A stretch of DNA of 64,000 bases from assembly GCA_963922205.1 (NCBI GenBank), contig CAWUHX010000013.1:1798001-1862000 (forward strand). The letters run 5' to 3'. This DNA is from Romanomermis culicivorax. Lineage: Eukaryota > Nematoda > Enoplea > Mermithida > Mermithidae. The notes below the pieces were generated by a model that saw only the letters and a list, made by a program, of their open reading frames with translations, did not search any database and was not told the DNA's origin. Below, piece after piece: positions 3,908-57,230 of the stretch (the stretch's first letter is position 1; the number at the start of each line of letters is the position of its first letter). Both the position numbers and the translations under genes were made by a program.

Positions 3908-4489
3908 TGTCGGGGATGGACATTGTCTATCTCCAGGTTGCGAAGAAATAGCCAAAGTCGACACAAATCGCGTCGACGCCAATTTGCATAGAAACCATGC
4001 ATAAAAGCGCCGGTTGTCTATGTTTTTGGTCATTCATGATTTTGTTGTTTATTTTTATAATAAAGGAAATCGGCGGCCAGTAGGCCATTTATTATATAAT
4101 ATTATTTTATTGTATTTTGTGGAGTTTACGCCTGAAATACAACGTCCCTCATCTGGACATTTATTGGACGTCTTGCAGCAGAGGGAAAGCAGGTTAGAGT
4201 GCCACCCAGCGTGCAAGTCTAAATTTGCAACTCAATTCTCGGCCTGACTTCTAGATTTGTCCCTGGTTTGAAGTTACATGAGCTCAGAGAGTTATTTGAT
4301 CTTCTGCAGTTCTTTGGAACGAAAGCACGTGATCTCCGTTGTACTTGAGACTGACCGAACTGTTGCAAACTTATTCTACCTAAGGTTTCGGCTTGATTAG
4401 GTGAATTAGTGAGTGACTGATTAGGTCTATTTTTGGTACCAATTCATTTATTATATTTCTCAATTTTAACCCCAAGTCTCATTTCAACA
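3908..4489 (+). repeat. E1 5' LTR
   Basis: 582 bp, begins TGTCGGGGATGG and ends ATTTCAACA, immediately before the primer binding site. It matches 14862-15465 along its whole length. Confidence 0.9.
3998..4064 (+). promoter_or_regulatory. Putative LTR core promoter and poly(A) signal
   Basis: A TATA-like GCATAAAAG at 3998-4006 lies about 90 bp into the LTR, with AATAAA at 4059-4064 some 55 bp further on. This is the spacing expected of a short U3, an R start and a poly(A) signal. Both are also present in the 3' LTR. Motif evidence only. Confidence 0.4.
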
Positions 4490-4491
4490 AG

Positions 4492-4507
4492 TGGTGGCTT
4501 CTGACAC
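4492..4507 (+). other. E1 primer binding site
   Basis: TGGTGGCTTCTGACAC lies two bases after the LTR. The same 16 bases follow the E3 LTR (57416-57431, -) and a close variant follows the E2 LTR, so these families share a primer tRNA. I cannot say which tRNA it is. Confidence 0.7.
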
Positions 4508-4515
4508 TCAAAGTA

Positions 4516-7108
4516 ATGGAAAATCAGAGGCAAACTCGAGGAGTCAAAAAACCTATTGGTTTTTACAGAGAATTGGGAGGCTTTAAAATGAATAAACACA
4601 ACCTAGGTGGCCTCAAGAGTTCGGGTTTGCCCAGAACACCACCAGGAAAAAAGGCCCGTGATGCAGAGAAGTTAATTGTCCTAACTTCAGTCGAAACTTC
4701 CGCTGAAGATGATAATTGCTCAGATCATAGGCCTTTATTGGTGGAAAATGAAGGCAACGGACCTACGACCTCGTCCGCTGTCGAAAGGGAGGACGATGAC
4801 GCCATATTACCATCAAATGGAGATCAAATATTTAAGATCCCATCGTGGACGAACCTCCCGAGGAGAGGCGAATTTTTACAACCGCCTATTACGGGACCCG
4901 CACGTCCATTACGGAAGATGAACATTCCGGTATTGGATCAACAGCAGCGCCAGCCAACAAATAAACCCGCTCAGTTATTCGATACCTACCATCAATTATA
5001 TTGGGACAACAAGCGGGAGGAACATCGTGAAAATCCTCGGTAAAGCTCATTGGAGGACAAGCTGGACCAAATCATGAACAGGTTAGATGTTTATGATAGC
5101 ATATTCACCAACATTGCTAATAATGGTTCACAGAAAGCCAGCAAGGCAAATGAACCGAGGCAAAGCAATGCTGGCTGTTTGGAACAAGGTGGTGCATTGA
5201 AGTTTGAGCAGACCAAGGAAGAGTTGGCATGGCCAAATGATGGTATCACTCTTCAGCAAGACTGTAGACCGAAAGACCAAAAGTCAAGTCTAGGTCCTAA
5301 AGAGCAGTTTATGCCACATTTGCCCACTACCTCAAGAGTGGAGCAGAGAGTGAGCAGTTGTGGTTTTGATGAAGGCGTAAAAAACCTGAGTCTGATAAAT
5401 CCAACTGTGTCACAGCAAAGCAGTTGTATTAGGGGAGAAAACCCAAATGTCAGGCAGCAGGTTATGCCTACAATGATTCCGATTGATCCAGCCTTATGGG
5501 TCAATCCAGCTCAAGTAGGCCCAACTGTCTATGACATTGAAAAGGCTATCAAACCGAAATTACTGCAATCTGATATGCCAAGTAGACAGGTTCTTGCTTT
5601 TCTAGTGGAGCTAGAAGGTGAGTTTTGAAAGAATACTCCCGATGAGGTGAAGCTAGAAGCATTAACCGGTTTGTCAAGGGATTTGCCCAAAGAATTGGCC
5701 GAAGAGTCAACAACATATAGGGAAGCCCGAGACAAGATTTTGAACTATTGTGCTACAGACTGTAACCTGGACATGCTCAAACGAGATTTATTGGATATCA
5801 AACAAGAACCAGACAAAGCAGCAACCAAATTCTTGAAAAGAGTTAGAGCACATGTGAATCTCGTTTACCAGAGGGAAACCAAAGAGTTTTAAATTGAAGT
5901 AATCATTGAAACCTTTTTCTATAGAAGTTCTTTAACTTATCAATTAGAACAGCAGTTAGAATTCAAAAATTGGTATGATCTTTCGCAGGCAGTCTATGAG
6001 ATAGAGTTAAAGTACAGGAATGGGATTAGAACATTTGGGCCAAGAGAGCAGCCCATGATGATAAACACGGCACAAACGGAAATTGCTGAGGAGCAGCAAG
6101 CCGATGTGAATGTAATCTAAAGGCCTTATGAAAGTGCCCAAAAACGCAATAAGGACTTCAGAAGACCAAACACAGAAAGGCAAACTCCAATGCAATCTTC
6201 GCAAAATCAATTGGTATATATAGCAGATGATGAAGTACTTGAAGTACCTCCGCAACAGGCCATAATGCCTCGGCAACAGCCTGTTGAGGAGCCAAAAAAG
6301 GACTCCCTTATGGTGGCTTTATCTAAAGAATTTATCAAAATGGCACAATGTTATGAAGAGATTAGGAACTCAACCAAAGCTCAAGTGGAAGCCATAACTG
6401 CTTTAACTCAGAAAGTTGATAAAGTGAAAACGAAAAGTCAACAAGAGGTTCAGCAGCGAAAATGGTGTACTTACCATGAAAATAACACCCACAACATGGT
6501 TGACTGTAGAATCTTGAATTTTTATAAGGGTCTACAAAATTGTGGAAGGGGTGGAAATAGTGGAAGGGGCTTTCCAAGAGGAAATCCTAGAGGAAGTTTT
6601 GGAAATTTCCGAGGTAGAGGAAATTTCCAAAAGAGGAAATCTCAGAGGAAATTATGGAGGAAACAGAGGAGGTTTTGGTAACGAAGGTGAAAGGGGAGCT
6701 TATCAAGTTTCATTTCCTGAGGATGAGGCGGAAAATTTGCAAGGATATGCCGAGTTCCAGGAATACGTAAAGTTGAAAAAGCTCAGGGAGCAGATGAGAT
6801 TGTTACAGGCTACCACCCAAATGATGTTACCAGGACCAAATCTAATGGACCAACAATCAGTAATCACAAATCAGAGTTCAAATACTCTATTGACTCCGCA
6901 AAAGGTAGTTATTCAGTCACAAGCCTCCGGGCAGACAGACCAACCGCCGCCTAGCAGTATCAATAGTGTACAGCAAGAACCAATGATGGAGATGAAGTTG
7001 TGTGGCCTACATAACTGTGCCATGGAGAAAGAGGAGAATGTGAGGGAAATGGAATGCAGTGCCGAGTATGGTAGAAAGGCAACTGTAGAGGAACTGGATA
7101 TGCTAGCA
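4516..7108 (+). pseudogene. gag: E1 gag (broken)
   Basis: Structural polyprotein of a Ty3/Gypsy element. It begins at ATG 4516 (MENQRQTRGVKKP). Capsid-like helices are read around 5500-6030, and a zinc-knuckle-like motif C-X2-H-X4-H-X4-C (CHHC instead of the usual CCHC) spans 6466-6507. A Gly/Arg-rich RNA-binding stretch follows at about 6540-6680. In-frame stops occur at 5041, 5626, 5890 and 6118, and the frame shifts by one near 6640, inside the G/R-rich part. It then reads open to the protease. The same zinc motif occurs in E2 gag. Upstream residues PIGFYRELGGFKM have counterparts in the E2 and E3 gag starts. Confidence 0.85.
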
Positions 7109-9665
7109 CAATACCCTAGAACGCAGCCATTTCACATCAGAGTAACTGTGTGTTCTACTACTGCAAAGGCACTGATTGACACGTGAGCTCAGTGTTTTGG
7201 TGATGTCCAGTGATCGCTTGAAAAAATCACTTGGACTAGTGTATACAGCGTACCCTAAGATCCTAGAAGTCACTGTTGCCGATGGTAAAGTAGTTAGTGC
7301 ACATGGTTATGTGCAGTTTCAAATGGAATGTGATTATGGCTGTTTTCGGGTTAAAGCTATCATGATACCAGGGTCCCCAGAGGATTTAATATTGGGAACA
7401 GACTTCCTAGCGCATCCGGAAGTCAAAATGGTAATAGACTTTGGAAAAGGTTCAATGACCATGATGAGTGTAGAGAAAAGTATCGATTTGTTAACATCTG
7501 ATAAGAAAGTGATTCCAATAGTTGGGTTGCATAATCCGATGATAGCAGAATCAATACAGGAAAATTCTATTGAAGAAGATCAATGTTTGGCAATCCAGCA
7601 GCTGGAAGATCTAGTTCCGGTAGTGGCTTGTAATAGAATTTACATTCCACACAGAACAGATCAGCTAGTCAAAGGTAAATTGTGGAACAAATCTTCGGCA
7701 AATAGGATAAATGGAATCATTGTAGAAGGAGATGATTCAGAAAGGAGATTCAGAATAGATGATACTATAGTTGAGGGTTCAAAGGAAGATTTTGTATTGA
7801 TGATCTCCAATAATACGGGTTCCGGTTGCCTGATAGAACCTAATCAAGTTCTCTTCTACTGTAACTCCGTATTTCGGGGAGAATCAAGTGTATCAATTTT
7901 GCAGGCTAGAAATTGTGGAGAAAATAGCCTAGAGGGCTTTTTCGATGCCAAAGAATCAAAATTCGATGGAGTTATGTTTCTGGAAGCATTGTACAAAATG
8001 ACCTCTAAAGCTACAGTGTCAGAGGAACAGAAAGAGATGGCAATACAGCAACTCGTGAAATACCAGGATGTATTTAGCCTACCTCATGATCCTCTGACAA
8101 CTACTCCCCATCTTACTTCTAAAATTGATACAGGTGATGCTAGCCCTGTGGCAAAGCATTACTACAGAGCTGCCATTGAATGGTGACTATATATCAGACA
8201 GCATGTGCAGGAAATGCTGGACAAAGGAGTCATAGAGCCAACAAGATCCCCCTGGGGGGCGTCATTATTCCTAGTAGGGAAGAAAGATGGATCGCTCAGG
8301 CCAGTCGTTGATTTTAGAGGCTTGAATGAGGTTATGAAGGATGATCGATATCCAATACCAAGAATGGATGATTATCTGGACTGCCTCGAGAGAGCAAAAT
8401 TTCGTATGACTCTTGACCTTAAGTCTGGTTATTGGCAAGTGCCAATGGAAGAAAGCAGTAAAGAAAAGACTGCTTTCCTGTGTCAAGAAGGGTTGTTTCA
8501 GTTCGAAGTAATGCCCTTTGGACTGAAAAATGCACCAGCAGAGTTCCAGAGGATGATGGAAAGAACCCTTCATCCTCATGTTTGGAAGATATGTCTAGTT
8601 CATATGGAGGATATCATAGTGTTCTCAAATATGTTCGAAGAACACACAGAAAATTTAAAATTGGTCCTGGTTGCTCTGAGAGGAGCTCAGCTTACACTTA
8701 AACTGGAAAAATGCGAATTCCTACCAAAAAAGGTTCATTTTCTTGGTCACATTTTGGATTCTAATGGAATTTCGCCCGATCTGAAAAAAGTGCAAGCTAT
8801 AAAGGAGTTTGAATTCCCGGACTGGGTCAAGCGTATGCAAAGGTTTCTCGGATTGCTCCAGTGGTGTAAAAAATTTATACCACACCTGGCAAAGCACGCA
8901 GAGCCTTTGTATAAGCTGACGGCCAAGAAAAGGAATAAATGGCTCATCACAGAGGATCATTACAAAGCATTTAATGCTTTGAAAGAAGCACTGGTATCGG
9001 TTCCATTTCTTAGGTACCCAGTAATGGATGGCTCAGCCCAATTCATTATGCAAACTGATGCCAGTGGAATAGCACTAGGGGCTGTTCTGTATCAAGAGTC
9101 TGCAGATGACAAGTGGGTCATAGCATATAATAGCCATGTGCTAAAAGAGGACGAGAAAAAGTGGTGCGCAACCGAAAGGGAGTGCCTAGCGATTATCTAC
9201 GGCCTCAAGATCTATCGGCACTATTTATTGCGGCAGAAAGTATTGATTAAGACAGATCACAGACCACTGTTATCAAGGAAAGTCAATACTACAACAAATG
9301 ACAATTTGTAACGGTGGTATGCGATCATAAATCAATACAAACACAAGTTAGAATATGTGCCCGGTAGACAAAATGCTATGGCTGACTTTCTCTCCAGAAA
9401 GGATGAGCCAGAGGATGTGGTGAAATCACCACCAAAGTGGGAAAGCATGTTCAAATCGGATGTTGTTTCCCCTGATGTCAAAGGAATAAAAGAACAAGAA
9501 CAACAACAAATTTTCTTACTGGCCGAGAGGAACAACATCTCCGAGGAGAATAAATCCCACAGAAAAGAAGAGAAGGAAGAGGATGCTCGAATTAGTTCTG
9601 AGGACAAAAGAGAGCATTCTAGAGGAGTAGAAGCAGTAGTAGAGATCAAAGTTGTGATCGATTGA
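7109..9665 (+). pseudogene. pol: E1 pro-pol: protease, RT, RNase H (no integrase)
   Basis: The aspartic protease starts with ALIDT, but the next glycine codon is a TGA (7184-7186) and the frame shifts there. It continues to the second flap region ILGTDFLAHP. RT follows from about 8100, with a TGA at 8184-8186, then VVDFRGLNE, the LDLKSGYWQ motif, FGLKNAPAEF, and HMED at 8601-8612 where the catalytic Y-x-D-D should be, so RT is catalytically dead. RNase H shows TDAS, ERECLAI and DHRPL, with a stop at 9309-9311, and then the YVPGRQNAMADFLSR connection. After that comes only a charged Glu/Lys-rich tail to TGA at 9663. No HHCC finger or DDE core is found. Confidence 0.9.
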
Positions 9666-10001
9666 GCTCATCGAGCAGCAAGAGTGTGTTGGGTTTAGAG
9701 TGAAAAACACCTAATTTCACATACTTTTGCCTATCAATTTTGGTTTCTATAAAGGGACACCCAACGGCCAGAAAGGCTAAATATCAAATTCCCTCTCCAA
9801 AAAATTTCAAAAGTTCAAAAGTTTAATGGTGTTTTGCACAAAGGTGCTAGAGTTTCCCCAAAGGTAAAGAGTATTAGTGGGTAAAATTACCCAAAGAGTT
9901 GAGAAAGGGTCCCGTAAATGCACATAAAGGAGTAGTAGAGTATATCTGAATAAAAAACCTAAATCTCTCCTGGATTTTCAGACCATAACATCCGTTGGGC
10001 G
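9666..10001 (+). other. Spacer between E1 pol and ORF3
   Basis: About 340 bp without recognisable coding content, with stops in all forward frames. An integrase would be expected here in a complete element. In E2 this position holds an integrase remnant and about 1.8 kb of further sequence. Confidence 0.5.
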
Positions 10002-13000
10002 ATGCGGATAGCAGAGTTAGAGATGTGGTTTTTTGCCACTTTTGAGTTCTGGCCCACCAATCCAATCGAGCCAATAACTGTCCCCATGGGAAGTGTGGAA
10101 AGGATGGTAAAACATCTCGAAAGCAGCACTTTCCAAGGCATGAACATTGTTGGCTTCGATGTGGAGAAAGTGAACTGCAAGGATGCGAAAAAACTATTTA
10201 GGTGGGGGATTGATAACGAAAAAGGCAACCAGTTTGCTAGATTAGTTTCGTTCATCCACCTAAATGGTAAAACGTTTGTACTTAACTTAACGTTGCTGCA
10301 AGAGCAAGAGTGGAACATTTTGTTACACTTTTAGGCTCAGCGACGTTGTTAGTCGGTTATGCCATTTTGGAGGACATAGTTTCAATTATTAATGTCCCAG
10401 GATGCGGAAAAAGCACCGATGGTCCCGATTTGTCTGACGCGATTAGATGTAGTATCAAGGATGGACATCTGGGAAGATACTATGATCCAAGCATCACGGC
10501 AAAGCAGATCATGGGAAGCGAGATTACCAAATCCAGGAAAGCAGGAATCTGCCCTGAGACATTAAAATTGAAAGGCCTTTTTGCCGAAATGTATCTGGCT
10601 GATATTGGTCCTCACCAAACTGATTTTAGTCTTTTGTGTAATAGGCAAAATGTGGCCAAAGATAAAGTCCCCGAGGAGATACTGCAGTATGCTGGTATGG
10701 ATGCGTACTTTTCTTTGGCAATTTTTATGGGGGCATTTCACTATGGGTATGTGAATGAGCTATGTGGGGGAGTTGCTAACTTTCCTCATGATATAGTAGA
10801 TCCAGCTCAAATTGAAATTCTCTCGAATAAATTCTATCAGTTTTACTCATATATAGTTAAGGACTATAAACTACGCAACTTTGTGGGTACACCTGATATT
10901 GTGGTTAGGCAGCCTGAGGCCACCTACCACATGATGCGCCAAGAAATGTACGCAAGATGGGCCATGCAAGTGCAAGAAATAGGGCCTAAATTTCTTTGCC
11001 ATCGGGATATTTGCAATCCTAGGAAAGGGAAGGAAACTTTGCTGTGGCTGGGCATCTACCCAGGTGCTTACCGTCAAGGTAAAAAATTAAAACCCAATTC
11101 CTATGATGAAGCAAGTGATCCCGATGATGATGAAATGACTAGGCCTGAACAGCGCTTGTTGGCCAAGGATAAATTACGCTTGGATTTGGTGGAGGAAATG
11201 GCGCAAGGGAAGCAGTATCATGAGCTAACACAACCAGCGTCCTTGGTGTGGTTTATAGACACAGCGAGAAAAGTTATCAAATTACCCCAGGATTGTCAAA
11301 AGCAAGCACTACTGGATGCCTTAAAAAATCATCTGGTTCATGTGCCAATTGACATTGATCCTGGAATGGGGTATTTTGATAAAGATCACTAGAAGCCCCA
11401 GCTAGCAGAGTATGCTAAGGCGTTTGAGGAAAAGCAGTTCTCAGAATTGCAAGCCCCTTGTACCTTAGTCCCGCTGGCGTTCCACGTGATCTGGCCCCAT
11501 CGCAGAAAGGAACTGGATTTTGTAATGGCAGAAATGTTTAGTTACAGGTTCATTACATCATTCAGCCCAGAGCTACAGGGCAAAATAAAGGAAATGGCTT
11601 GGTGGTCAGACGATAGGTTGTCCCAATATCTTTTGTTGGCTAAGACTCTTCCAAACATAGAGTATGAGGTACCCCGAAAAGGTACTGGAATATATGTTTG
11701 GATGAATCAATTTGGATTTATGCCGATTCAGTTGAGGTTGTAAAAAGATGCAGATATGTGCGCGCGGATCCTTGGTAGTCCTGACAGGATAACTACGGAC
11801 AGTAAGAGCTATAGCTCAAATCCGTACTATTATGTTAGGTTCTATCATATCGAGCTAGCACAGAGGACGCCTTCATTAAGATATGGGGTAACCTGGCAAA
11901 CTAAAATTGACAAGGTTGGAGACGTCTATGGGTCATCGGCTGAAAATAGGGAGTATAATATAGCCTTCCCTAAAAAGATCTTTGACTATAGACCCTTGGC
12001 CTCAGATTTACCGGGAATTCAGCATACATTTAGTTATAAAATGGGTGAAGGTACTATCACCAAACTGGCTGGCAAGATTAGTCCCACCAAGACTGATAGT
12101 CTGAAAGGTGAGGACAAAAAGCAAGCTGGAGTAAGTGTAGTTGAATTTCAGATACTTTCAGGTCAAGAAGTCCAAACATCGGAAAGCGAAATCTTCAGCG
12201 ATGCAGTGGGACTGCCAGCTGGGGATGAATCGCAAGACAGGAGGCTAAATGAGGATGTGACTGAACTGTCGGAAGAAGAGCAGCAGGAAGAGCAATCCAT
12301 TCCGGCCACAGAACTGATGGAAGCTCAAACTGCTCAGACGCAGTCCAAACTCATCAACCAACGTCGATTGGAGGAAATTTTAAAGATGGAAGAGGAGGCG
12401 AAGGAAAAGATTCGACTCCAACGGAAGCAAATGGAGGAAGAATTGAGAAAGAATATGGCGATTTACAATGAGAAAGTGTGTCAAATGGGGATCCAATTCG
12501 GACTCCAAAAGGATGATGCCATAGCGCCCAAAGTGGAAAAGAAAGTATTAGAGCAACCATTGCCGATGAAAGTAGACGATGATATGGCCTCCGAAAAGCT
12601 CATTATTGACGAAACGATAGCGGAAACACCCGAATCAGAGATGACGGAGAGCAAGGAGGTAATAGCTTTTTCCGCTGATGGAAGTGTACCAGGGTTGTAT
12701 TCAGCCAAAGTCGTTCAGAGTATGAGAGAAAAAGGGTGGAACAATGAGAGAATATTATTCATGACCAAAAGAAAAAAGAAAATGAGATTGAAGGAGAAGG
12801 AAAAAAGGAAGAAGGGCGGCAAGGGAGCAAAAGTAGAACAGAAGGAGGAAGACAGCAAGATGGTGACTTGGTCCATCATATCGACCTCAAGTTCTACGAT
12901 TACCTCCACTGCTACCCCCACATCCCAAATTACTTCAACTTCAACTGGAACACCATCAGTGGTTACGTCTTCAGTGGCAACTGCAACTCAAGATAGTACA

Positions 13001-14056
13001 TCAAAGACTAGTCAAACTTCAGGTGCAATAGGCCTTGCGATAGGGAAACCGACACCGAAAGGTCAGGCAAAACCCAGCAAGGACCAAAAACCAGGAGTGG
13101 CAGCTAGTCAAGTACAAGGGGCTAGTCCTAGCAAAATTAAGCAGGCACAGGCTGCTCAGACAACTGAAACGCTGGAGGTGACTGCAGAAAAATTCAAGGA
13201 CAGTCTCTTGGACTTTTGGGATGTCTATCAACCAAAAACCAGAGAATCTGGACCGATATCATTTTTTACGCGTGCAGTGGCCAAATATTTTGCTTTCGAG
13301 CAATTTGAGTCGGAAAGAGTGTTTCTAATGGTAAATGATGCCGTTAGGGAAATCTACCCGGATTATTAACAACAGTTCAGAGTCCAGGGAGCGTTTCTCT
13401 ATGATCGGACAAATTTACCAGAAGAACTCTGGGAAAGAGTCATGTATGATTTTCTCCCCAGGTGGCTCAAGGCGGAGAGAGCACCTGACGTGTTTTCCTC
13501 GGTTATGTATCTGGTTATGATGCTATTCCTTGTGTTGGAATGTGCCCGGCTATCCCCGATGCATATTGGCAACATTTATGCCAGGGCAATGGTGGCGGCA
13601 AATAACCGACTGTTGAGGGTGTATAGTAACCAGGATACCCCCTTGGAATTAAAAACGGCCTTTCAATCTGTGGTGCTCAGTAGCAATCACCAGGTCCGAG
13701 TGATGGGAGCCAAAAGGAGTGCCAGTTCAGACTTGCAAAGCTCTGTTAAATTCAGTAAAGCTCAAAACAGAAAAACTGGCAAAACTTTGAAGGTTCCCAG
13801 ACCTCAAGGTCAAGGTCAAAGCCAAGGAAGCCAGCAATTAGCCCCGATTACGAAAGGAAAAAAACTGGTAACCACAGCCGAGGCTAATTTCAGTTCTACA
13901 ACCCCAACCGGGGTGGTCATGGAGCGGTGCGTGGCAGAGGTGCTGTGCCCCAGGTGCAAGGTAGAGGTGGCCAGCAGGGCCAATGGGTATGGAGGCCTTA
14001 CGGAGGTCATGGAGGAGGGCACAGAGGGGCGCAAGGAGGTGGTGGGCTGCAACAGT
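10002..14056 (+). pseudogene. E1 ORF3: DEDDy exonuclease-like domain + coiled coil + RGG tail
   Basis: About 1,350 codons. The first 110 are in one frame (10002-10334); the rest (10310-14083) is in another frame broken only by stops at 11390, 11741 and 13367. Near 13880 the tail moves frame and ends at about 14056. The N-terminal third looks like a DEDDy 3'-5' exonuclease: motif I GFDVEK (about 10151-10168), motif II with LED (about 10366-10384) and motif III YAGMDAY (about 10687-10707), so D, E, D, D and the tyrosine are all present. Next come about 400 unrecognised residues, a Glu/Gln/Lys-rich coiled coil (about 12230-12500), a Ser/Thr-rich linker, a conserved hydrophobic region (about 13180-13640) and an RGG/GGH tail. 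E2 has a collinear homologue. The function is inferred: nucleic-acid 3'-end trimming and RNA binding. It could instead be a structural protein with a decayed fold. Confidence 0.7.
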
Positions 14057-14861
14057 AATTTAGCCGCAAGGTTTTTGGCCTAAAAATATCGTTTTCACAT
14101 TTATTTTTGATAAAAAGCACAAAATACAAAGAAAAATATGAAATACAAAATACTAAAAAAAATTTTTTTAATTGTTGTGTGCTTTAAATTTTTATTTTTT
14201 TTCGTACCTTGGCATAGCCTAAAAACAGGCATAAACAAAATTTATTTTTCCACTTAATCTCAGTTATAATCTCGCCTTATTATTATTCTTTTTGTTTATT
14301 TTTTGCTCAATCAATACGCCCGGGATATTTTGATTTTTTGTGATAATCGTACTAATGTACATATTTTGTAGATTATTTAGATATTGTAGAAAATTTTTTG
14401 GCGAGGGCAATATTGGAAAAAGTGCGGAGACTTCATGGCAAAACACCCAACCGGAAAGAGATAGACAGATAAATGTTCTGTCCCTGGCGTCCAGCATATG
14501 GCACAAAATGAAAGGTCATGGGATGGTCAGTGACGGAAGACCCTCGGCCCTGGTGCAGGTCAAATTGGATATGGGGGTAGGCCAACAAAGTCAAGCCAAC
14601 GCGGAGTCGTCGATCCGTCCGCATCCAGACCAAGAGGTAGCTCACCCGGACGGCCTTGTGGACATTCCAGTATGCCTGGTAAAAAGACTTGATGTAAGAG
14701 GGTGGTCATTCAGAAAGCTTTCTGCAAGGGAGCATGAATGACCAAAAAGGTTCAGAAAACCGCTTTGACTGTATTAGGTCCTGAAAAGGTTCCAAAATTG
14801 TCATTGCAGCTTATTATGAATCTTTTTAACCTCCCATTGGTCAGTTTCGAGGCTCAAGGGA
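14057..14861 (+). other. E1 3' untranslated region
   Basis: AT-rich sequence followed by a more GC-balanced stretch that is open from 14340 to 14741 (133 codons, basic, no match recognised). It ends with a purine-rich GGCTCAAGGGA directly before the 3' LTR, the likely polypurine tract (14851-14861). Confidence 0.5.
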
Positions 14862-15465
14862 TGTCGGGGATGGACATACCCTATCTCCAGGTTGTGAAGA
14901 AATAGCCAAAGTCGATGCAAATTGGGTTGACACTGATTTGCATAGACACCATGCATAAAAGTGCCGGTTGTCTATGTTTTTGGTCATTCATGATTTTGTT
15001 GTTTATTTTTATAATAAAGGAAATCGGCGGCCAGTAGGCAATTTATTATATAATATTATTTTATTATTTTTTGTTGAGTTTAGGCCTGAAATACAACGTC
15101 CCTCGTCTGGACATTTATTGGATGTCTTGCAGTCGAGGGAAAGCAGGTTAGACCCCGGATTTCTGGAGTGCCACCCAGCGTGCAAGTCTACATTTGCAAC
15201 TCATTTCTCAGCCTGACTTCTAGGTTTGTCCCTGGTTCGAAGTTACTTGAGCTCAGAGAGTTATTTGATCTTCTGCAGTTCTTTGGAACGAAAGCAGGTG
15301 ATCTTTGTTGAATTTGAGACTGACCGAACTGCTGCAAACTTATTCTACCTAAGGTTTTGGCCTGATTAGGTGGTTTAGCAAGTGACTGATTAGGTCTATT
15401 TTTGGTACCAATTCATTTATTATATTTCTCAATTTTAACCCCCCCCCCCCCGTCTCATTTCAACA
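14862..15465 (+). repeat. E1 3' LTR
   Basis: 604 bp. It matches the 5' LTR but has a short extra stretch near 15153 and a run of C at about 15439-15451, which account for its greater length. It ends TTTCAACA at 15465. Confidence 0.9.
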
Positions 15466-18457: not shown

Positions 18458-19692
18458 TTACGGGTCAGAGACCTCTGCATCAAGATATGGGTCAAGGAGA
18501 TCTTGTGTAAAATCTCCATTTGTTAATGGAATCAACAAAGGTGCTGTCTCAACTACCTGTGAAGTGGAAGGTATATCCTCTGCTTTACTTGGTTGATCAG
18601 GTGACACGTAGCGTCTAAGCTGATTGACATGCACTGTATCTTCTCGATCTGTCTCAAGCTGAATGGTGACATTAAGATATGCCACATTCGTTTCAGAGTA
18701 GGGCCCATCCTAAATGGGCAGCAATTTGGGCATAGGACCATGTGACCCGGTGGTGCACAGTTTGAGCACTTGATTCCCAACTCTGTATGAAACATCTCAT
18801 GCCATGCGATGGTAAGACTGAGTATAAGCTGCCTGTGATATCTCAATCCAACTCTGGATCAAGGTCAAGGCATTTGTAAAATGTCATTTGACCTCCATGT
18901 CATATGTTGAAATATCAATGATATGGGCCGGAGGGTTGATTGAGAGCTCTGCATCAACAGGTAGCATGGGTGTAAGACCATACATGAGTTCAAAGGGGGA
19001 ATATCTTGTGGACTCATTCATGCTAATGTTGATGGCAAACACAGAACACCCAGGTGTTCATCCCAATCAGTATGACCTTGGTGGACATACATACATGTCT
19101 GTGTAGCTAGCATTTGATTAGCTCTCTCCACTTCACTGTTTGTCATGTGGTGATAAGCAGTAGAGTGGATTTTCTTAGTTGAACAGATGGGAGTGATTTC
19201 TGTCGTCAGTTTTGATGTGAAATCAGTTCTACAGTCAGACTGAAGAACCTGTGGTGCCCCATGCCTGCAGACAATTTGTGTAACAAGGAGGCGTGCTATG
19301 GTTTGTGCAGTTATATCCGGAGTAGCGAAAGCTTCAACCCATTTAGTAAAGTAATCAATAAAGACTACAATAAAACAGTTGCCAGCCTCACTAGTGGTCA
19401 TTGGTCCCATACAGTCAACACCTACTTGATGAAACAGCCCCCTAATAGTGATCAGTTTCAGAGCTGCTCGGGTCTTTTGTCTGGCAGGTTTATTCCGTTG
19501 GCAAAGATCACGCAACTGACAAAAAGACTTGACGTCCACACTGAGGGAAAGCCAGTGGTACCTGCGGGCTATAAGCTACCCGGTACATTTAGCACCAAAG
19601 TGTCCAGCTAAAATGTCATTATGGTCAGCCTCAATAATGGTAGTAACCATGGATGGGGGAATGACAATCTTGTTGGATTCGCCTGTCCACTT
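18458..19692 (-). pseudogene. E5 integrase
   Basis: Inserts the cDNA into the host genome. An HHCC-like finger is read near 19640-19500 (HNDILAGHFGA, then FCQLRDLCQ). The DDE core follows: VGVDCMGPM, then QSDCRTDF, then NSEVERANQ, so all three acidic residues are present. The C-terminal GPY/F-like part is at about 18780-18690 and shifted in frame. The gene ends with a VNQLRRY segment and stops at 18458. Frameshifts near 19020 and 18700 and a stop in the finger make it inactive. Confidence 0.85.
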
Positions 19693-21441: not shown

Positions 21442-21577
21442 TGGTCACAGTACTCACAGTACCAGCAAAATATACCCTGCGTTGATGTCCCAGGTGGGGC
21501 TTAGGAAAGAAAGCTTCCTCCGGTACATTCACATATAGTGATGGTACAGGTGCAGTAAATTGCATCAGCGAGTGAGG

Positions 21578-22100: not shown

Positions 22101-22157
22101 ACCAGTGCGTCGAAGTAGTCCTACCAGAGCATAACCAACGGATGTTTCTGGATTAGT

Positions 22158-33190: not shown

Positions 33191-33254
33191 TTGGAGGCAT
33201 GCACAAGCAATTAACCAACCTCTACCCCCAATATGGTAATGCCTTCCAAGGAAA

Positions 33255-42938: not shown

Positions 42939-43537
42939 TGTTGTGCAGGTCTTTCCTTAAGGGTTTAAGAAAAGATTGGTACTGGTCTGAACTAACCTGT
43001 TAGAACTAATTCCTTGGCTAAGCCTTGGGGATTGTGCAACAGTCCAGTTCCCCTAGACCTGGTAACAAAAAAGATAAACTTACTTTAATTGAGGGGCCTC
43101 ACAATGGAGCCCTCATAGTCTCTTAGAAGAGACAAGGAATCCCCTCTGGGATAGACTTACTTGCAGGATCCCCTTCTGGGCCTTCCTGAGCTTGCAGTCA
43201 GCAAGTGGGCGCCTGGGCCTTTGGCCCTTTGCTCTAAATGCTTGGTCGGTTCTAAACAATGAACAACATGTGTAGCAAACTCGGACAAATATTAAAAAGA
43301 ATGTGGCTATATCACTATATAATTAATGTAAATTTGAATACAATGTGCTGAGATAGAGCTTATTGGATGCCAGCATATAATATCAAAAAAGATATAATAA
43401 TGACAATGAATAATCATTATCACTTTTGGTCTTTCTGTGGTGCTCCATTTCGCAAATGTCTGAGCCACTAGTCGTCCAATTCTTTGATTTGTGTGGTGAT
43501 TTCTGGACGCAACTTGCCATCAACAGGGTGCCCAACA
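42939..43537 (-). repeat. E2 3' LTR
   Basis: 599 bp. It starts TGTTGGGCACCCTG at 43537 and ends TGCACAACA at 42939. It is preceded by a purine tract (GGGGGAGGGA, 43538-43549 on the minus strand), the likely polypurine tract. Confidence 0.9.
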
Positions 43538-43568
43538 TCCCTCCCCCGTCCAAATCGACCTATGGGAA

Positions 43569-43639
43569 GTAGAAAATTTTTGGTTATTCTACTAATGGCC
43601 GGGTTACCCGGGCATTAGTAGAATAACCAAAAAGTCTAC
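43569..43639. repeat. Perfect hairpin near the E2 3' LTR
   Basis: Arms of 18 bp pair perfectly (TTGGTTATTCTACTAATG at 43580-43597 and its complement at 43613-43630). The loop contains a further 5-bp CCGGG/CCCGG stem, and partial pairing extends outward to GTAGA/TCTAC. It lies 31 bp from the LTR border. Confidence 0.85.
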
Positions 43640-44266
43640 CATCTGGCTGACTCCCAGTTTCCCAGTCTGTCTAGCTCAGACTCCCGTAATGGTCGTTGGA
43701 CACAACAAATACCAAGGACTTCACCGCAATGGCTGGCAAGTGGCGCCCATTTTGACCTCCGCTTTGATGGAATATCTCCTGCCCTAAGGAGTATGACGTT
43801 GCCGTCGGCGCCAAATTCGGTCGATTTCGGGTTCTATTGTATGGTCTGCATGTTGTGGCAAGTTGTTGGTCAATGGTCTAATCGCATGCAAATCTCTTTC
43901 CCACGTCTCTATATTTTTTTCTAGAATAAACTAAAATACAAGATTATATTTTATGATACAAAAAGACGATGCGGGAATGTACAAGTATCACAAAATTTTA
44001 AGATGTGCTAAAAAATTTGAGCAAGAAATGTGGCCAAAAAATTTGAAAAATATTCTTTGCAGTTGTTTTTTGCATGGGTTTGTCAAAAAGAAGATTTTTG
44101 TTGGCCAGCAGCACAGAAAATTTAAATAATATTTTTGGATTTTGTGATTTTATAATTTTTTGGGTTTTTTTGTAAATTGATCAGTGTTTTTGGGTTTTGT
44201 ATTTTATGAAATTAGTAAAAACTTTGTGCGAAATTGATGAATTTTGAGCCAAAATTGTGCAGCTAT
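43640..44266 (-). other. E2 3' untranslated region
   Basis: No coding content recognised. GC-balanced near the hairpin and strongly AT-rich from about 43920 on, comparable with the AT-rich stretch after E1 ORF3. Confidence 0.5.
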
Positions 44267-47200
44267 TTACTGCTGCTTCCCCCCGCATCTATAGCCTCCT
44301 CGAGGCCTTCCTCGATAGTATCTCCTCTGGCTTCTGGCCTTGGCCTCCAGTTCGACCTCCATCTTGGCCTTGGTTCTGGCCTTGTTGGCGGCCACTGCAT
44401 CTGCCAAGCAGTTCGGAATTCTGATTGTGAAATTGCCCGTCCGGGTCTTGGCCTTGGTGTTGCCAGTTTCCTCCGCCTCTGTAGGGTCACTGAGGGCGCC
44501 CTCGGAAGCCTCCTCTGACTTGACCTCCACCATACCCCAGTCTACCCCCGTATGGGGCAGGGTTCAAGAATACATCCACTCTCCCCTGTTGTCTCTGGGC
44601 TGAACCACTGCTAATGGAACCGCTATATTGTTGCTTTTGTTGTCAAAAAGTTGAACTTGAGGATTTTGATGAAGTTGATAGAGTTTGAGATAATGGACTT
44701 TTGTACGAAGAACTAGCAGCTCCACTATATGACCTCTTCTGGTCGAAGTTGATGGTTGTTGCATCATTGGCCATTGTTTCTTAGCTGGTAGAAGTCTAGG
44801 CACCTTAAACTTACCTGGGCTCTTGGCATCTGTGCCCTGATATTTATCAGGCTTTGGTTTGTCATTGCCCGGTGCCCTCCTTTTCACACCCATTTGGTTT
44901 AACCTCTGCAAACCCATAAAGATATATTGATTAAAGGCTGCAATGTAGAATTCATCTACATGGTTTACCTGGGCTTCAATGACTAGTTGTCTGTTCCCAA
45001 ACGAACACACCTGGGCATACCATCTACCAATTGCCGTGGGCGTGATCGAAGCAAAATCCAACTGTAAGAATATCATCAGGGTCACATACCTGATGGCTAT
45101 AAAGATGTCTGAAGCGTCATAATCCTGGAGCCACCTGGGAATGAGAGCCAAAATGATCCATTCCCAAATTTTTTCAGGTACATGTTCTCTGTCAAACATG
45201 AAACCTCCTTGCATTTAGAATTGCTGGTGGCAGTAATTATCATGATTTTTGGCCATGGCATCATTGACCATTCTGTGAACCATTGGCCGTTCTTGGCGGT
45301 CAAAGGCAAAATAATTGGTGACCTCTGGATTTTCAAATGAGATCGGGCCAATCATTCACTTCTGTTCTCTTTGCCACTCCCAATAATCAATCAGAGTTTC
45401 TGCTCATTGACCAGAAGTGACATATTGCTGTGGTTCCCTTGCGGGTCTATTACCTACCACATTCAATTTTTCCTTTGATTCAAAATTGGGCTTTACCAAC
45501 AGGCTTCCAACCTGTTTCTTACTCTTGGCAGTACAGCTTGTGGGAAGGGACTTAGTTTTGCCAGATGATGTACTAACCTCTCCACCAGTTTTTGATACTG
45601 TTTGTGTCAGAGTGTACGAAGCAGCGGATGTTGCTGACCTACCCGATTTTGTTTGACTTTTTGAGGTCTCCATTTTTGTTTGACCCTTTGAGGTCTCCAT
45701 TTTCGACTTTTGCGTTGTGTCGATATATCTGGGGTCGTCGTTTCTTCGGCCTGTCGTAGGTGCCATTTTTGGAAGTGGTCACGGGCGTTCGTTGCGGCTG
45801 CTGTTCCGCTGCTAGTCTATGTGCCTGTGCCTTACTTAGTCTTTGTCCGCATCTTACCTTTTCTCTGCCTAGATGGTGGATGAATTTTTCCGACATTCCT
45901 CCAGCCAACATCTACTGAACTTTCTCAGGAGGCTATACTCTGGGGATTCTTTCATGATAAATTTTTCTCCTCTTCATCAGCTCTGTGGCCGCTACAGCTG
46001 AATCTGAGCTGTCATCAGTGTATGACTGCTCCTTCAACTTTTTCTGCAATGCCCGCTGGCACAGGAATTCCTGCTGCCCCAGGCATTTCTGTTCCTGAAT
46101 TTTGGCCTGAAGGGCCTCAGGCTTCGCTTGCAGGTCCTGATGCTTAGGATCTTTAGGTTTGACAGGTATTTCCTGGGATGCTTCTTGCATCTTGTCCAGT
46201 CTAACATTGATTCCCGACATTTTAGTTGTGCCCTTGTCTATTTGAGTCTGGATTTTTTCCTCCTCAATTTCCTGTTGCTGCGTTTTAGCCTCCATGGAGT
46301 CTTTCTCCTCCGCTGTCTGGCTCGCAGATTCCAGAATCTCACCTTCTTCTTCCTCCTTCAAACTGGACACAGAGTCTGAATTCCGTATCTAGGGCAACAG
46401 ATGTTTAATTTTAGCTGGTAAAACAGCTGGCGTCGGAGGCACAGTTTGCATTATGGTGACAACTTCCCGTTCTACTTTTACTGGTTGCTGTACTTGAGGT
46501 ACTTGAGTTGGCTGTGCCACCGCTGGTTGTGCTTGCCGCAGCACCACATCTACCACTGCAGCAGCTTGTGTAGCTCTGGTGGACCAATGCTGGTTGTTGT
46601 GTTTTGACCACCAGGGCCAGTGCTTGCAGCTGTGTCTTAACCTGTCCTGACCCTCCAGCTTGCGCTGTTTGGGCTACTGAAGGACGATTTAAAGGTACTT
46701 TAGATACCAACTCACCAGCTGGGGTATACGTTAATGTATACACGGGCATATCCAAAGCCAATGTTCTCTCCTGGAAGCTATTGCTGACAAATTCCGGTCT
46801 GATTTGGAGTGGATTTCGTGGAGTATATGCCGTTGGGTAGTCCATTGGTTCTGTGTCTTCCCTCATGGGATACCGCAATCCGGGTGTCAAAGTCTTGAAG
46901 CTTATATAATAAAAAGTTACGTAATAGTAAGGATTCACCTTATAAGCTTTGTCCTTTAGTAACAATTTATAGTCCCCAGTTTGCAAGGCTTCCTCAGCCT
47001 CTCTAAATTGTAGCGGGACAAATCCGAACCGATTCTGCCACAACTGTACCCCTGTTTTCAATGGATTTCGGGGTTCCAATGGTGGCAACATTGCTGCTAG
47101 CTCTAAATAGTAAGCCAGGCAGTCGCCTGACTTCCAGGATATGTGTTTTATCGCTTCTTGGCCGTCTCTACTATAACTATTTAGAAAACTGTTATTTAGC

Positions 47201-48802
47201 AGCTGTGCTGTTTTGAAATCACACTCTGCTCTAGAAGGAGGCCATGGCAAATGATAGGTCAAAGGCATAAATTTACAGATTTGCTCTAACTCCGTGAAGT
47301 TTCACTCATCCAAAACTTTCAATATCTTGGCCAAATTCGAGGTGTAAAAGTTTGTCCTATAGACTCCTTCATGATCTTCTATGTCCACTGGGTAATGGTT
47401 ATTACCAGAGAACGCTTCTTGTGGGATCTCATCAGGCTTCCCGGCTTGTAGCCAGTATAGCTTAGCATTTTTGTACAGCATCATTGATATCTTACTGTCT
47501 AAATCCCAAAAAAAACCTACCGCTTTTGAGATTTTCCAGGATATCTGGGCTGATATTACTCTAGTCTGGCATTTGAACATCCTGAATATGGTCGGGATCA
47601 CTGTCTTCACTATACCCATTGTCTTTGAGTGGCTTGCTATCCCTTGGGAGTAGGGTGTAAAATCCACTCAGCAATGGGACATCTCGTCCTCTGGCCCCAT
47701 TACACTCTGTTGATGCGGTATAATAACCCGTGTTATTTCCCTGAACTTGAATTGCCAAATGGTTGTACATCTCACACTTCATCATATGGTACACTATATT
47801 AGGCTGTACCTGATCAGTTTCCATGGCCTGGGACCCTAGTCCCATTTGGCAATTCACGTGCCCTGGTATTGCCGAATACTGTTGGTAAAAATGAAGGGCA
47901 ACTGTATTGATCTGTTTGGGTTCCATTCTATCATGATCGAAGACCTGCATCTGCATCAGCAGGTAATCGGCCATGCCATAATGGATGGCAGCAAACATGA
48001 CCAATAAAGAATAATAGGCCTCTAGAGCTGCGTACCTCAGCTCTTCCGGTAAAATGCCTCTTTTGGCAAACTGATCACGGTTCGCCTTAAGTGTGAAGTC
48101 ATATCTATAGGGGCCGACATCTATTAAGTAAAATTCAATAAACAATCCCTTTTACCTGAAGGTTTTGGGACATATACCCATATGAAAACATTGTTTCTCT
48201 AGGTTCGGCCCTACCATTGTCAAGGCGAAGTGGTCTAAATCATAGTAGCGACCTCTGGTCTTTCTAAGATGTTCCTGCAAGGGGACAGCTTTGTCCCTAT
48301 CCTTATTATCTCGCCATGATCTGCATACATTGTATATGCTAACTAAATCCTCTAGTACTAAATACCGGGCAAATAACATGTCTGAGTTTAGGAAATCGTG
48401 AAGACTTACCCATTCTTTCTCCAATAGGCCGGTGGTATTGATTACATAAGTTTGACCATTGGTTAAAGCGAAGCTTACATATTGGGCAAATTGCTTTCCC
48501 ATCGGGTTGTCGACCTCTCTCATTTTAAACAAGGCCGTGACTTTGTCCTGATGTACCTTTTCGACATAGAATCTGCAAACTGGTTGTCCTCTAAAAATTG
48601 AGACTTCTCGGATATACTGGAGTACTTGGCTAGCCTTACCCATGTCTACCAGGACTGGTTCCTTGGGATTAGCTGGTCAGTATCCAAAAGTGGCTTTGAA
48701 CCACTCATCCAGTTTGTGGACTCTGACGACCCTTATGACATTGTAATCTAAATATTTAAAGATACTGTAAGTTTGGTTACTTATTCCCCTTCTTTCCAGC
48801 AT
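44267..48802 (-). pseudogene. E2 ORF3: exonuclease-like domain + coiled coil + RGG tail
   Basis: Starts at ATG 48802 and runs about 1,500 codons to TAA 44267, collinear with E1 ORF3. Exonuclease-like motifs are decayed: motif I FYVEK (D replaced by Y), motif II LEDLVS (intact, about 48340), motif [12 protein letters not shown] (D replaced by E). It continues with a [17 protein letters not shown] segment also seen in E1, an [15 protein letters not shown] region, a Pro/Val/Gln-rich stretch, an acidic coiled coil (about 46370-45930), a Lys/Ser/Thr-rich linker and the conserved hydrophobic domain (about 45230-44900). The Gly/Arg-rich tail ends near RGRPRGGYR. A stop near 48670, a frameshift near 48150 and several later breaks are present. 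Confidence 0.7.
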
Positions 48803-50575: not shown

Positions 50576-50639
50576 CGTGGCGCATCCTGATTTGCTCACG
50601 CTATTCACTGCAAGACCCTAGTGGTCTCCTAATAAAAAT

Positions 50640-51195
50640 GTTTCAACCTGCTGATTGAAACAATTTGGCTATTTAGCAGATTGTCCCAATGAACAATGGT
50701 GACAACATTTTCCGCTGCTCGCGAAATGTCCGTAATTATGAATGGACCAGACCATGGTAGTCCTAATTTCTTCTGCTTGTCTACTTTGAGCAGAACCCAG
50801 TCCTTTTCCTTGAACCTGTATTCTTTGGACTATTTATCGAAGTATTTCTTCAATTTTTCAGCAGCATTCTGGATATGTTTAGCAATATCCTCCTAAAGAT
50901 TGACTAAATGGTTTGTCAACACAAATTTGTAAGCCTCTGCATTAATGTCCAACATTACAATATCATATGCTTCCGACAAGTTTAACCTGAAGGTTGCCTT
51001 GTGTCCTTTAAGCAATGAATTAGGGGATTGTCCTGTTGCTGCATGTAGCATAGCATTGTAGGCAAAGATCACAGATCTTAAATATCCTGGCCAGTTATCT
51101 TTTTCTTCAATCACCACTTTTCTGAGCTGCTTAATGAGTGTCTGCTTGAATCTTTCAACCATACCATTTCCCTGAAGATGGTAAAGTGGGGTATA
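50640..51195 (-). pseudogene. E2 integrase C-terminal remnant
   Basis: The core end reads LQGNGMVERFKQTL (with the catalytic E), DNWPGYLRSV and ATGQSPNSLL. It continues through a coiled coil and the C-terminal WVLLKV..GPFIITDI module to about 50650. A stop lies near 50830. The finger and the two core aspartates are missing because the foreign piece replaces them. Confidence 0.85.
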
Positions 51196-51790
51196 TACTT
51201 ACCCGTACGCACGTGCGCCGCCGATTTTTGAGCGGGCCCCGCAATTTGCGGCCCAGAAATTGAACGCACAATCGTGCGCCGCATTGCAGGTGCTGGGCGA
51301 AAAATTTGTGGGACCCAATAATTTTGCGCGTGCGGGCAAGTAGAAACCATTTCTACTTTTACGCACATTTGTAACTCATGTGGATCAGGAACCACCGCCG
51401 CAGTACAGTAAAGTATTGTTTTTTGCCCATGGCGCACGATTGAACTTCATTTTCGAGCCCCCCCCCCCCCCGTTGGCGCGATGCGATCACATGCAAATAT
51501 TTTTAGCTTGTTTCTGAAATGGGGGGAAAACTTTGGACTGTTTCCCAAGTTGGAAAAAAACATTTTGGGATGCACAGTAGAAAATTCAAAAAATATTACA
51601 CATGGAAAATACATGGCTACTGTGCCTGGCGCATTTTAAAACGCAATGTCATACGTTCAGGGGAGGGGCACCGTTTTTTCCTCAGATGGGGTGTTTTGAG
51701 GAAAAAATTTCGAAATGAGGAAAAAAATTTTGGGTATGGTTCTCATTGAGGAAAAAATTTGAGGGAATTCAAAACCGAAAAGATGTCAAG
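51196..51790. other. Foreign 595-bp piece in E2 pol
   Basis: Replaces the end of RT, RNase H and the integrase start. It has GCGC/GTGCGC-rich motifs at about 51210-51340, a run of 14 C near 51462-51475 and a stretch with repeated GAGGAAAAAATTT. No ORF or known element is recognised, and no target duplication shows at its edges. Confidence 0.5.
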
Positions 51791-53570: not shown

Positions 53571-53572
53571 CA

Positions 53573-56569: not shown

Positions 56570-56650
56570 TTTAAATCCTGCTAACTTTCTGTAGAAACCT
56601 GGAGGATATTCCTTTCTCCTAGTTTGACTACAATGTTCTGTTATGAGGAG

Positions 56651-56665: not shown

Positions 56666-57230
56666 TGCTGTGCAGGTCTTTCCTTAAGGGTTTAAGAAAA
56701 GCTTAGTTCTGGTCTGAACTGACCTGTTAGAGCTAATTCCTTGGCTATGCCTCCGAGATTGTGCAACAGTTCAGTTCCCCAGACCTGGCAACAACAATGA
56801 TAAACTTACTTTAAATGAGGGGCCTCACACAGAGCCCTCGTAGTCTTCCAGAAAAGACAAGGAATCTCTTCCTGAGCTTGCAGTCAGCAGGCAGGCCCCT
56901 GGGCCTTTGGCCCTTCGCTCCAGTTGGTCGATTGGATCTAAAGAATAAACAATAAGTATAGCAATTATTTCCGACGAATGTTAAAAAGAATGTGGCTATA
57001 CCACTATACAATTTATGTAAATTTGGATATGATGTGCTCAGATAATATTTATTGGAAGCCAGCATATAATATCGAAAAATATAATAATGACAATGAATGA
57101 ATCACTATCACTTTTTTGGTCTTTCTGTGGTGCTCCATTTCTATGCAAATGTCTGCACTGCTGGTCGTCCAATTTGTCGATTTGCATGGCGATTTCCCAA
57201 TGCAACTTGACATCAACAGGGTGCCCAACA
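56666..57230 (-). repeat. E2 5' LTR
   Basis: 565 bp starting TGTTGGGCACCCTG at 57230 and ending TGCACAGCA at 56666. It aligns with 42939-43537 throughout, with scattered substitutions and short deletions, so the insertion is not recent. Confidence 0.9.

What the first reader, a model, noticed from the sequence alone, without database searches (positions are those of the whole stretch)
10002..14056. Ty3/Gypsy element with a giant ORF3: DEDDy exonuclease domain, coiled coil and RGG tail
Seen: inside the E1 LTRs, after pol, one ~1,350-codon reading carries FDVE, LED and YAGMD in the order and spacing of DEDDy 3'-5' exonucleases, then a coiled coil and an RGG-type tail. Known: DEDDy exonucleases include the RNase D and WRN types; from memory, DEDDy ORF3s were reported in bdelloid rotifer LTR and Penelope-like elements. 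Inference: a composite accessory protein that may trim 3' ends of RNA or cDNA and bind RNA. The size and the added modules look unlike the reported ORF3s.
Basis: partly seen in the sequence, partly recalled or inferred. Interest (0 to 1): 0.9.

Follow-up and report, generated by a model that had tools for sequence, protein, structure and literature searches.

The report
Jumping gene with built-in exonuclease
A retrovirus-like jumping gene with many open copies in this genome carries an extra protein of about 1,400-1,500 residues that begins with a WRN/EXD2-like exonuclease domain and ends in an RGG tail, and the protein is under selection to stay intact, although its job is not known.

Summary
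E1 (LTRs 3908-4489, 14862-15465) holds ORF3 in three frames with three in-frame stops and has lost integrase by a private deletion. A second, diverged element in the window (E2, minus strand, 42939-57230) carries a homologous ORF3. The window's genome (359 Mb) holds over 100 scored copies of each family, many open: ORF3 about 1,398 codons (family A, E1's) and about 1,519 (family B, E2's), inside LTRs, behind a single-frame Gag-PR-RT-RNaseH-IN. Open copies of both families keep D-x-E, D and YxxxD, and their profile matches WRN/EXD2/RNase D/NrnC over all motifs (hhalign 90.6%, E 1.3e-6). Structure prediction failed twice, so the fold is not shown. ORF3 is under strong purifying selection within family A (pN/pS 0.04-0.19 by segment). 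Its homology starts at a conserved splice-acceptor-like AG, so it is probably made from a spliced mRNA. The RGG tail is confirmed in both families; the coiled coil is not. The same genome has another Gypsy-type frame followed by a 608-aa DEDDy ORF. DEDDy ORF3s are known in bdelloid rotifers; this is a larger, abundant variant.

The parts
3908..4489 (+). E1 5' LTR (TG...CA)
14862..15465 (+). E1 3' LTR (604 nt; 43 mismatches in 582 aligned)
4490..7183 (+). E1 gag region, broken into several open pieces
   Evidence: open in L142
7176..8183 (+). E1 protease region and linker
   Evidence: Pfam gag-asp_proteas E 0.0086, under its cut-off; 4e-10 in open copy L142
8187..9308 (+). E1 reverse transcriptase and RNase H
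   Evidence: RVT_1 9.5e-33, RT_RNaseH_2 1.2e-26
9641..9642 (+). Junction of a ~2.3 kb deletion relative to L142 (removes integrase); 0 of 29 other loci share it
9980..9981 (+). AG of candidate 3' splice site (ggattttcag|ACC); ORF3 homology starts within two residues of it
9982..10331 (+). ORF3, exonuclease N part with motif I (FDVE; D 10158-10160, E 10164-10166)
10334..10770 (+). ORF3, exonuclease C part (other frame) with motif II (LED, D 10373-10375) and motif III (YAGMD, 10688-10702)
   Evidence: PF01612 E 0.018, 15.3 bits, below cut-off; Smith-Waterman to WRN/EXD2
10771..11389 (+). ORF3, stretch behind the exonuclease, conserved at least to about 11125, no known family
   Evidence: (E2 homology)
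11393..12070 (+). ORF3, second conserved domain (o3b and o3c1), no known family
12344..12490 (+).
   Evidence: not supported by heptad test on an open copy
13190..13720 (+). ORF3, C-terminal hydrophobic domain conserved between families (40% identical in open copies), no known family
13900..14058 (+). ORF3, RG-rich tail (third frame in E1) and stop TAA 14056
56666..57230 (-). E2 5' LTR
42939..43537 (-). E2 3' LTR (76 mismatches in 556 aligned)
50632..51198 (-). E2 integrase remnant (between RT and ORF3)
   Evidence: homologous to E3 integrase region
44260..48754 (-). E2 ORF3 (broken), homologous to E1 ORF3, with RG-rich stretch in another frame; motif I D is Y and motif III D is E in E2 (18 of 30 family B loci read keep all acids)

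Best explanation
ORF3 is a real, selected gene of two related Ty3/Gypsy families. It encodes an accessory protein whose N-terminal part is a DEDDy 3'-5' exonuclease of the WRN/EXD2/RNase D superfamily with its catalytic acids intact, followed by further conserved domains of unknown family and an RG-rich tail. It is made from a spliced subgenomic mRNA, as env would be. In the most likely mechanism the protein joins the element's RNP through the RG tail and digests 3' ends of RNA or single-stranded cDNA there. Shown: gene, position, conservation of catalytic residues, selection, RG tail. Inferred: fold, catalysis, splicing, RNA binding, substrate. Odds within this reading: processing of the element's own RNA/cDNA 3' ends about 0.4; destruction or trimming of host small RNAs or dsRNA about 0.35; RT proofreading about 0.1; other 0.15.
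For: Catalytic acids and tyrosine all present in the longest frame of 26 of 30 family A loci and 18 of 30 family B loci; 4 and 10 further loci have frames that do not cover all motifs, and two family B loci (L113, L139) have an acid changed. hhalign of 8 unmodified exonuclease domains against WRN, EXD2, RNase D, NrnC and a diDNase ancestor: 90.6%, E 1.3e-6, 145 columns over motifs I-III; window-only profiles of PR and of the ORF3 C-terminus gave P 0.15 and 0.55. PF01612 six-frame scan of the genome: at least 8 of 119 rows lie in family A ORF3, one over the cut-off with its neighbours (24.0 v 23.6 bits). BLASTP of the family A domain with the 608-aa DEDDy ORF, itself PF01612 1.4e-10: E 0.002 for this single comparison, 195 columns. 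pN/pS 0.06 exonuclease, then 0.06, 0.04, 0.19 for later segments (190 of 210 pairs of 21 copies); codon position identity between E1 and E2. Acceptor-like TTTAG before the conserved start in 24 of 24 family A and 15 of 15 family B copies looked at. RG tail in 5 of 5 C-termini read.
Against: Family B gives no PF01612 hit at E<=1 and family A 17.3 bits, below the 23.6 cut-off. PDB profile search with the ORF3 domains found no exonuclease (best rows Dpo4, E 0.12 and up). AlphaFold2 failed twice. The motif I half alone is not above shuffles (226 of 500); of the E2 pieces one is not (346 of 500) and one weakly so (17 of 500); A4 v A11 P 0.3. An RNase D HMM scored the E1 pieces like shuffles. No transcript data; splicing is unproven. 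Noncoding spacer diverges less (0.015) than ORF3 synonymous sites (0.071), so pS is not a clean neutral yardstick.
Confidence: 0.72

Rival explanations
1. Pseudo-exonuclease: a DEDDy fold kept for RNA binding and RNP scaffolding, as in Maelstrom or EXD1, without catalysis.
For: Such inactive DEDD derivatives exist (PMC5408684, text). RG tail and further domains fit an RNA-binding scaffold. E2, L113 and L139 lack one or two of the acids.
Against: Most loci read, of two families about 46% identical, keep all acids and the tyrosine (26 of 30 and 18 of 30); E2 is a decayed copy with 76 mismatches in 556 LTR bases.
Confidence: 0.15
2. Env-like protein: ORF3 in the env position serves cell exit or entry and the exonuclease likeness is incidental.
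For: Position after pol and spliced-type start; the C-terminal domain is rich in hydrophobic residues.
Against: No envelope or fusion family by Pfam in the C-terminal halves or the N-terminal part; the protein ends in an RG-rich basic tail; catalytic residues conserved.
Confidence: 0.06
3. Chance or weak resemblance: the motifs are coincidental and ORF3 is an unrelated conserved protein.
For: Sub-threshold Pfam score, no PDB hit, failed folding, motif I half not above shuffles.
Against: hhalign over all three motifs, PF01612 genome scan, link through the 608-aa DEDDy ORF, 0 of 500 shuffles for the motif II-III half of E1 against five DEDDy proteins.
Confidence: 0.07

Closest known systems
DEDDy ORF3 of bdelloid rotifer LTR retrotransposons (Juno1/2, Vesta2/5) and Athena/Terminon elements (PMC5408684)
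   Same: DEDDy-type exonuclease ORF downstream of pol in LTR retrotransposons; more than one LTR lineage of one genome carries it.
   Different: Here no dUTPase found between PR and RT, a 1,396-1,529-codon ORF with further conserved domains and RG tail, gag and pol in one frame, many open copies, and strong purifying selection. The paper reports few full-length copies per family, near-neutral intragenomic variation of the cloned env- and GDSL-like ORF3s (DEDDy not tested there), a DEED motif, and no coiled coil in the DEDDy ORFs.
608-aa DEDDy ORF behind a Gypsy-type frame in the same genome (L146)
   Same: Separate DEDDy ORF right after RNase H and integrase; aligned to the family A domain, E 0.002.
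   Different: Less than half the size, PF01612 41.7 bits, no RG tail in its C-terminus as read; no LTR found in the 9 kb held.
WRN / EXD2 / RNase D exonucleases
   Same: Order D-x-E, D, YxxxD; alignment over 145 columns.
   Different: 20% identity in that alignment; a longer stretch between motifs II and III; extra C-terminal domains.
Burro giant Gypsy elements of planarians (PMC6431247, passages)
   Same: Gypsy elements with very large multi-domain proteins.
   Different: Extra domains inside the polyprotein; no exonuclease ORF3 named in the passages seen.

Membership tests
Ty3/Gypsy LTR retrotransposon | LTRs TG...CA | tested here: met
   E1, E2, L142/L143
Ty3/Gypsy LTR retrotransposon | pol order PR-RT-RNaseH-IN | tested here: met
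   L142 and L144 by Pfam; E1 itself lacks IN
Ty3/Gypsy LTR retrotransposon | 4-5 bp target site duplication | tested here: inconclusive
   CACG on both sides of L142/L143; none at E1 or E2
Ty3/Gypsy LTR retrotransposon | RT phylogeny | not tested
   no tree was made
DEDDy 3'-5' exonuclease | four acids D-x-E, D, D and the tyrosine of YxxxD | tested here: met
   26 of 30 family A and 18 of 30 family B loci
DEDDy 3'-5' exonuclease | profile match over the curated cut-off | tested here: inconclusive
   PF01612: L086 17.3 bits, L121 none; one family A copy 24.0 bits with neighbours; hhalign 90.6%
DEDDy 3'-5' exonuclease | RNase H-like DEDD fold | tested here: inconclusive
   AlphaFold2 pLDDT 39 and 33, no fold search made
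DEDDy 3'-5' exonuclease | metal-dependent 3'-5' activity | not testable with these tools
   needs an assay
Bdelloid Juno/Vesta type with DEDDy ORF3 | dUTPase between PR and RT | tested here: not met
   no dUTPase family at E<=0.01 in L142 or L144 gag-pol; feature from PMC5408684 text
Bdelloid Juno/Vesta type with DEDDy ORF3 | DEDDy ORF3 inside LTRs after pol | tested here: met
   4 of 4 ORF3-bearing elements with LTRs looked at

The most novel reading that the evidence does not exclude
ORF3 is a retroelement-encoded counter-silencing nuclease: a spliced, RNA-binding DEDDy exonuclease that trims or destroys the host's small RNAs (or dsRNA precursors) at their 3' ends, turning the host's own trimming chemistry (Nibbler, Mut-7 kind) against it, and this explains why its families reached many near-intact copies and why another Gypsy-type element in the same genome also carries a DEDDy gene.
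Probability: 0.22. Interest if true: 0.88.

Novelty: new variant of a known kind. Interest (0 to 1): 0.62.

Why it matters
In the papers I found, DEDDy ORF3s are a feature of bdelloid retroelements with few full-length copies per family, and selection on the DEDDy ORF itself was not reported (PMC5408684). Here a much larger version sits in abundant open elements and is under strong purifying selection, in a genome where another Gypsy-type element carries its own DEDDy gene. That makes the open question (why do retroelements take up RNase D-like exonucleases?) testable by biochemistry and small-RNA sequencing.

Tried and rejected
Profile and structure routes: phmmer/hmmsearch against PDB with E1, A4, A5, A12 and the C-terminal domain gave no DEDD or other credible hit. 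An HMM mostly of gammaproteobacterial RNase D was too narrow: E1 pieces scored like shuffles (1135 and 701 of 2000), one E2 piece did better (46 of 2000) and one gave no score. hhalign against the narrow set A6 showed only motif III, P 0.033, and nothing for A4; controls 0.27, 0.63, 0.54. An alignment of four pieces (A2) was misaligned and not used. Two AlphaFold2 jobs failed, so no fold search was run. No relatives in IMG/VR, phages or GTDB contigs by the patterns and sensitivity used. Considered and dropped: that E1 is a family without integrase (E2 has a remnant; L142 and L144 have it; 0 of 29 loci share the deletion); that the C-terminal domain is a second Gag capsid (hhalign P 0.069, 0.8%); the coiled coil (family A best 42-mer 192 of 2000 shuffles, family B best 42-mer 36 of 2000, uncorrected for scanning). 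The host was not identified: Rfam SL1 searches did not complete, and the window has no Rfam hit or tRNA.
Full report
What is in the window. E1 is an LTR retrotransposon on the plus strand with LTRs 3908-4489 and 14862-15465 (TG...CA, 43 mismatches in 582 aligned bases). The three exonuclease motifs are really there (D 10158, E 10164; D 10373; Y 10688 and D 10700), but E1 does not encode one protein: motif I is in another frame than motifs II and III, three stops follow in the second frame (11390, 11741, 13367), and the RG-rich tail needs a third frame.

A second copy of the idea. E2, on the minus strand (LTRs 57230-56666 and 43537-42939, 76 mismatches in 556), carries a homologous ORF3 over most of its length: 41% (exonuclease N), 38% (exonuclease C), 42%, 27-30% and 32% identity in the blocks. 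Between E1 and E2 the identity by codon position in the exonuclease blocks is 0.49-0.53, 0.59-0.63 and 0.32-0.34 for positions 1, 2 and 3, which is the pattern of a coding sequence under constraint and like that of gag and protease. E2 keeps an integrase remnant between RT and ORF3. E2 itself has Y and E in place of two catalytic acids.

The genome. The window lies in a 359 Mb, 595-contig genome. The E1 piece 10286-11389 gave 111 scored matches of 2890 first-look candidates and the E2 piece 47561-48151 gave 150 of 2487; both counts are lower bounds. Many copies have one open frame of 1,396-1,398 codons (family A, E1's) or about 1,519-1,529 codons (family B, E2's). One family A copy (L142, L086, L143) has LTRs with 1 mismatch in 600 bases, CACG on both sides of its ends and a single 2,237-codon open frame for Gag-PR-RT-RNaseH-IN; a family B copy (L144) has 2,305 codons and LTRs 94.2% alike over about 500 bases. 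ORF3 lies between pol and the 3' LTR. E1's lack of integrase is a deletion of about 2.3 kb relative to L142 that none of 29 other loci shares.

Is it a DEDDy exonuclease? For: with a strict pattern all three motifs stand in the longest open frame of 25 of 30 family A loci (L082-L111) and 16 of 30 family B loci (L112-L141). A closer look adds three loci in which only a neighbouring residue differs (L084, L114, L115), so the acids and the tyrosine are all kept in 26 and 18 of 30. In 4 and 10 loci the longest frame does not cover all motifs. L113 has K for the E of motif I and L139 E for the last D. The two families are about 46% identical over the domain. A profile of 8 unmodified domains aligns to WRN, EXD2, RNase D, NrnC and a diDNase ancestor over 145 columns from motif I to motif III, probability 90.6%, E 1.3e-6; the shallower window-only profile A5 gave P 6.3e-4, A4 (motifs I-II) P 0.3, and control parts 0.15 and 0.55. 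Smith-Waterman of the motif II-III half of E1 against five DEDDy proteins beat all 500 shuffles; the motif I half did not (226 of 500), the two E2 pieces gave 346 and 17 of 500, and the four control pieces 193 to 500 of 500. In a six-frame PF01612 scan of the whole genome at least 8 of 119 rows lie in ORF3 of family A (seven at places listed, one known by its 1,398-codon frame), one of them just over the cut-off with its neighbours. A DEDDy ORF from another element of the same genome, PF01612 1.4e-10, aligns with the family A domain at E 0.002 in a single comparison. Against: family B alone gives no PF01612 hit and family A 17.3 bits, under the 23.6 cut-off; the PDB profile search found no exonuclease; both AlphaFold2 runs failed on these shallow alignments (pLDDT 39 and 33), so the fold is not shown. 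I hold the family assignment at about 0.9.

Selection. Among open family A copies pN/pS is 0.06 for the exonuclease, 0.06 for the stretch behind it, 0.04 for the second domain and 0.19 for the linker (21 copies, 190 of 210 pairs; 20 pairs were dropped because codon identity was under 0.8). Earlier, with other bounds, it was 0.09 in A (23 copies, 210 of 253 pairs) and 0.09 in B (10 copies, only 16 of 45 pairs; pairs of unequal length or under 75% codon identity were dropped). The pairs are not independent, the copies were picked by similarity to E1 or E2 and for open frames, the C-terminal domain was not covered, and the noncoding spacer before ORF3 is less diverged (0.015) than synonymous sites (0.071), which I cannot explain.

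Expression. Protein homology between E1 and E2 starts within two residues of an AG. That AG is ATTTTTTAG|ACCAC in 24 of 24 family A copies and TATGTTTAG|ATTAT or AATGTTTAG|ATTAC in 15 of 15 family B copies in which the start of the conserved part lies in the longest frame. The G is also the first base of a conserved Asp codon, so part of this is protein constraint. None of these 15 family B frames has an ATG before the conserved block. The distance from the pol stop to this point is over 1 kb in L142/L086. The simplest reading is a spliced subgenomic mRNA with its start codon in an upstream exon. No RNA data were available.

Other modules. The RG-rich tail is real: 7-10 RG pairs in the last 110 residues read in 5 of 5 C-termini, one of which (L143) ends early. 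The Gag C-terminal region is RG-rich too. The coiled coil is not supported in family A (4411 of 5000 shuffles as good for the segment in question) and is weak in B (36 of 2000, uncorrected). The C-terminal domain (40% identical between families) matches nothing in Pfam at E<=0.1, nothing credible in PDB, and not Gag.

A second DEDDy lineage. The PF01612 scan gave 95 of 119 rows over the cut-off; only one of these 95 has an open frame over 1,000 codons, and 14 of the 119 have frames of 608-614 codons. The one that I fetched (L146) sits right behind a frame with zinc knuckle, RNase H and integrase zinc finger, with no RT family found in it. No LTR was found in the 9 kb held. I did not look at the others, and some will be host genes.

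Known and new. Bdelloid Juno and Vesta elements and Athena/Terminon elements carry DEDDy ORF3s (PMC5408684, parts 1-3 of 5 of the text read; PMC6431247 and PMC5718144, passages). PMC6338049 names a DnaQ-like 3'-5' exonuclease as a known accessory domain of LTR-transposon polyproteins, citing the bdelloid paper among others (passages). Searches of the open-access library with DEDDy, DEDD or exonuclease together with retrotransposon, ORF3, Gypsy or nematode (with Terminon and Penelope-like) listed no paper that by title, start of abstract or the passages seen describes such an ORF3 outside rotifers; most listed papers were not opened, and the library lacks most subscription journals. I do not know the host; if it were a bdelloid, the high number of open copies would itself be unlike the paper's report. 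The host and the RT phylogeny are open.

How it most likely works. The constant features are an intact catalytic centre, an RNA-binding-like tail, a separate (probably spliced) message and selection. This fits a nuclease that acts in the element's RNP or on host RNA. Own 3'-end processing, counter-silencing and RT proofreading cannot be told apart by sequence.

Noticed in passing
19018-26464, minus strand: Another Gypsy element with RVT_1 (3.9e-25) and rve (5.5e-8), whose stretch between gag-like and protease/RT parts holds a piece like the mononegaviral Monjiviricetes fusion glycoprotein (PF24664 E 2.8e-6, 26.0 bits, just under its cut-off 27.0). Gag and protease assigned by eye. An env-like part between gag and pol was reported for planarian Burro (PMC6431247, passage).
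   Followed up: partly
28543-37873, plus strand: Third related Gypsy element (E3), main LTR blocks 79-94% alike, RT homology and integrase H2C2 (6.7e-6), no ORF3 match found.
   Followed up: partly
L146 3687-5510: 608-aa DEDDy ORF directly behind a Gypsy-type RNase H/integrase frame that seems to lack RT; 14 rows have frames of 608-614 codons.
   Followed up: partly
L084-L111, 700 nt before ORF3: Noncoding spacer is less diverged among copies (0.015) than ORF3 synonymous sites (0.071); pS is highest behind the exonuclease (0.153). Unexplained; recombination or a constrained spacer would do.
   Followed up: no
4417-4520, L142 from 1129, L144 from 516: Gag N-terminus is alike between families (QTR..K.P.GFYR.L.G.KM, by eye) even before the first in-frame ATG of the family B copy L144, which suggests an unusual or spliced start of Gag.
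   Followed up: no
54348-55432: E2 has an internal tandem duplication of part of gag, copies 85-92% alike.
   Followed up: no
40307-40810, minus strand: 167-codon open frame in a 30% GC stretch, no Pfam match; by eye like a small protein seen in Polinton-like elements (recalled, not tested).
   Followed up: no
316-773: Two 186-nt direct repeats, 95% alike, starts 272 nt apart.
   Followed up: no
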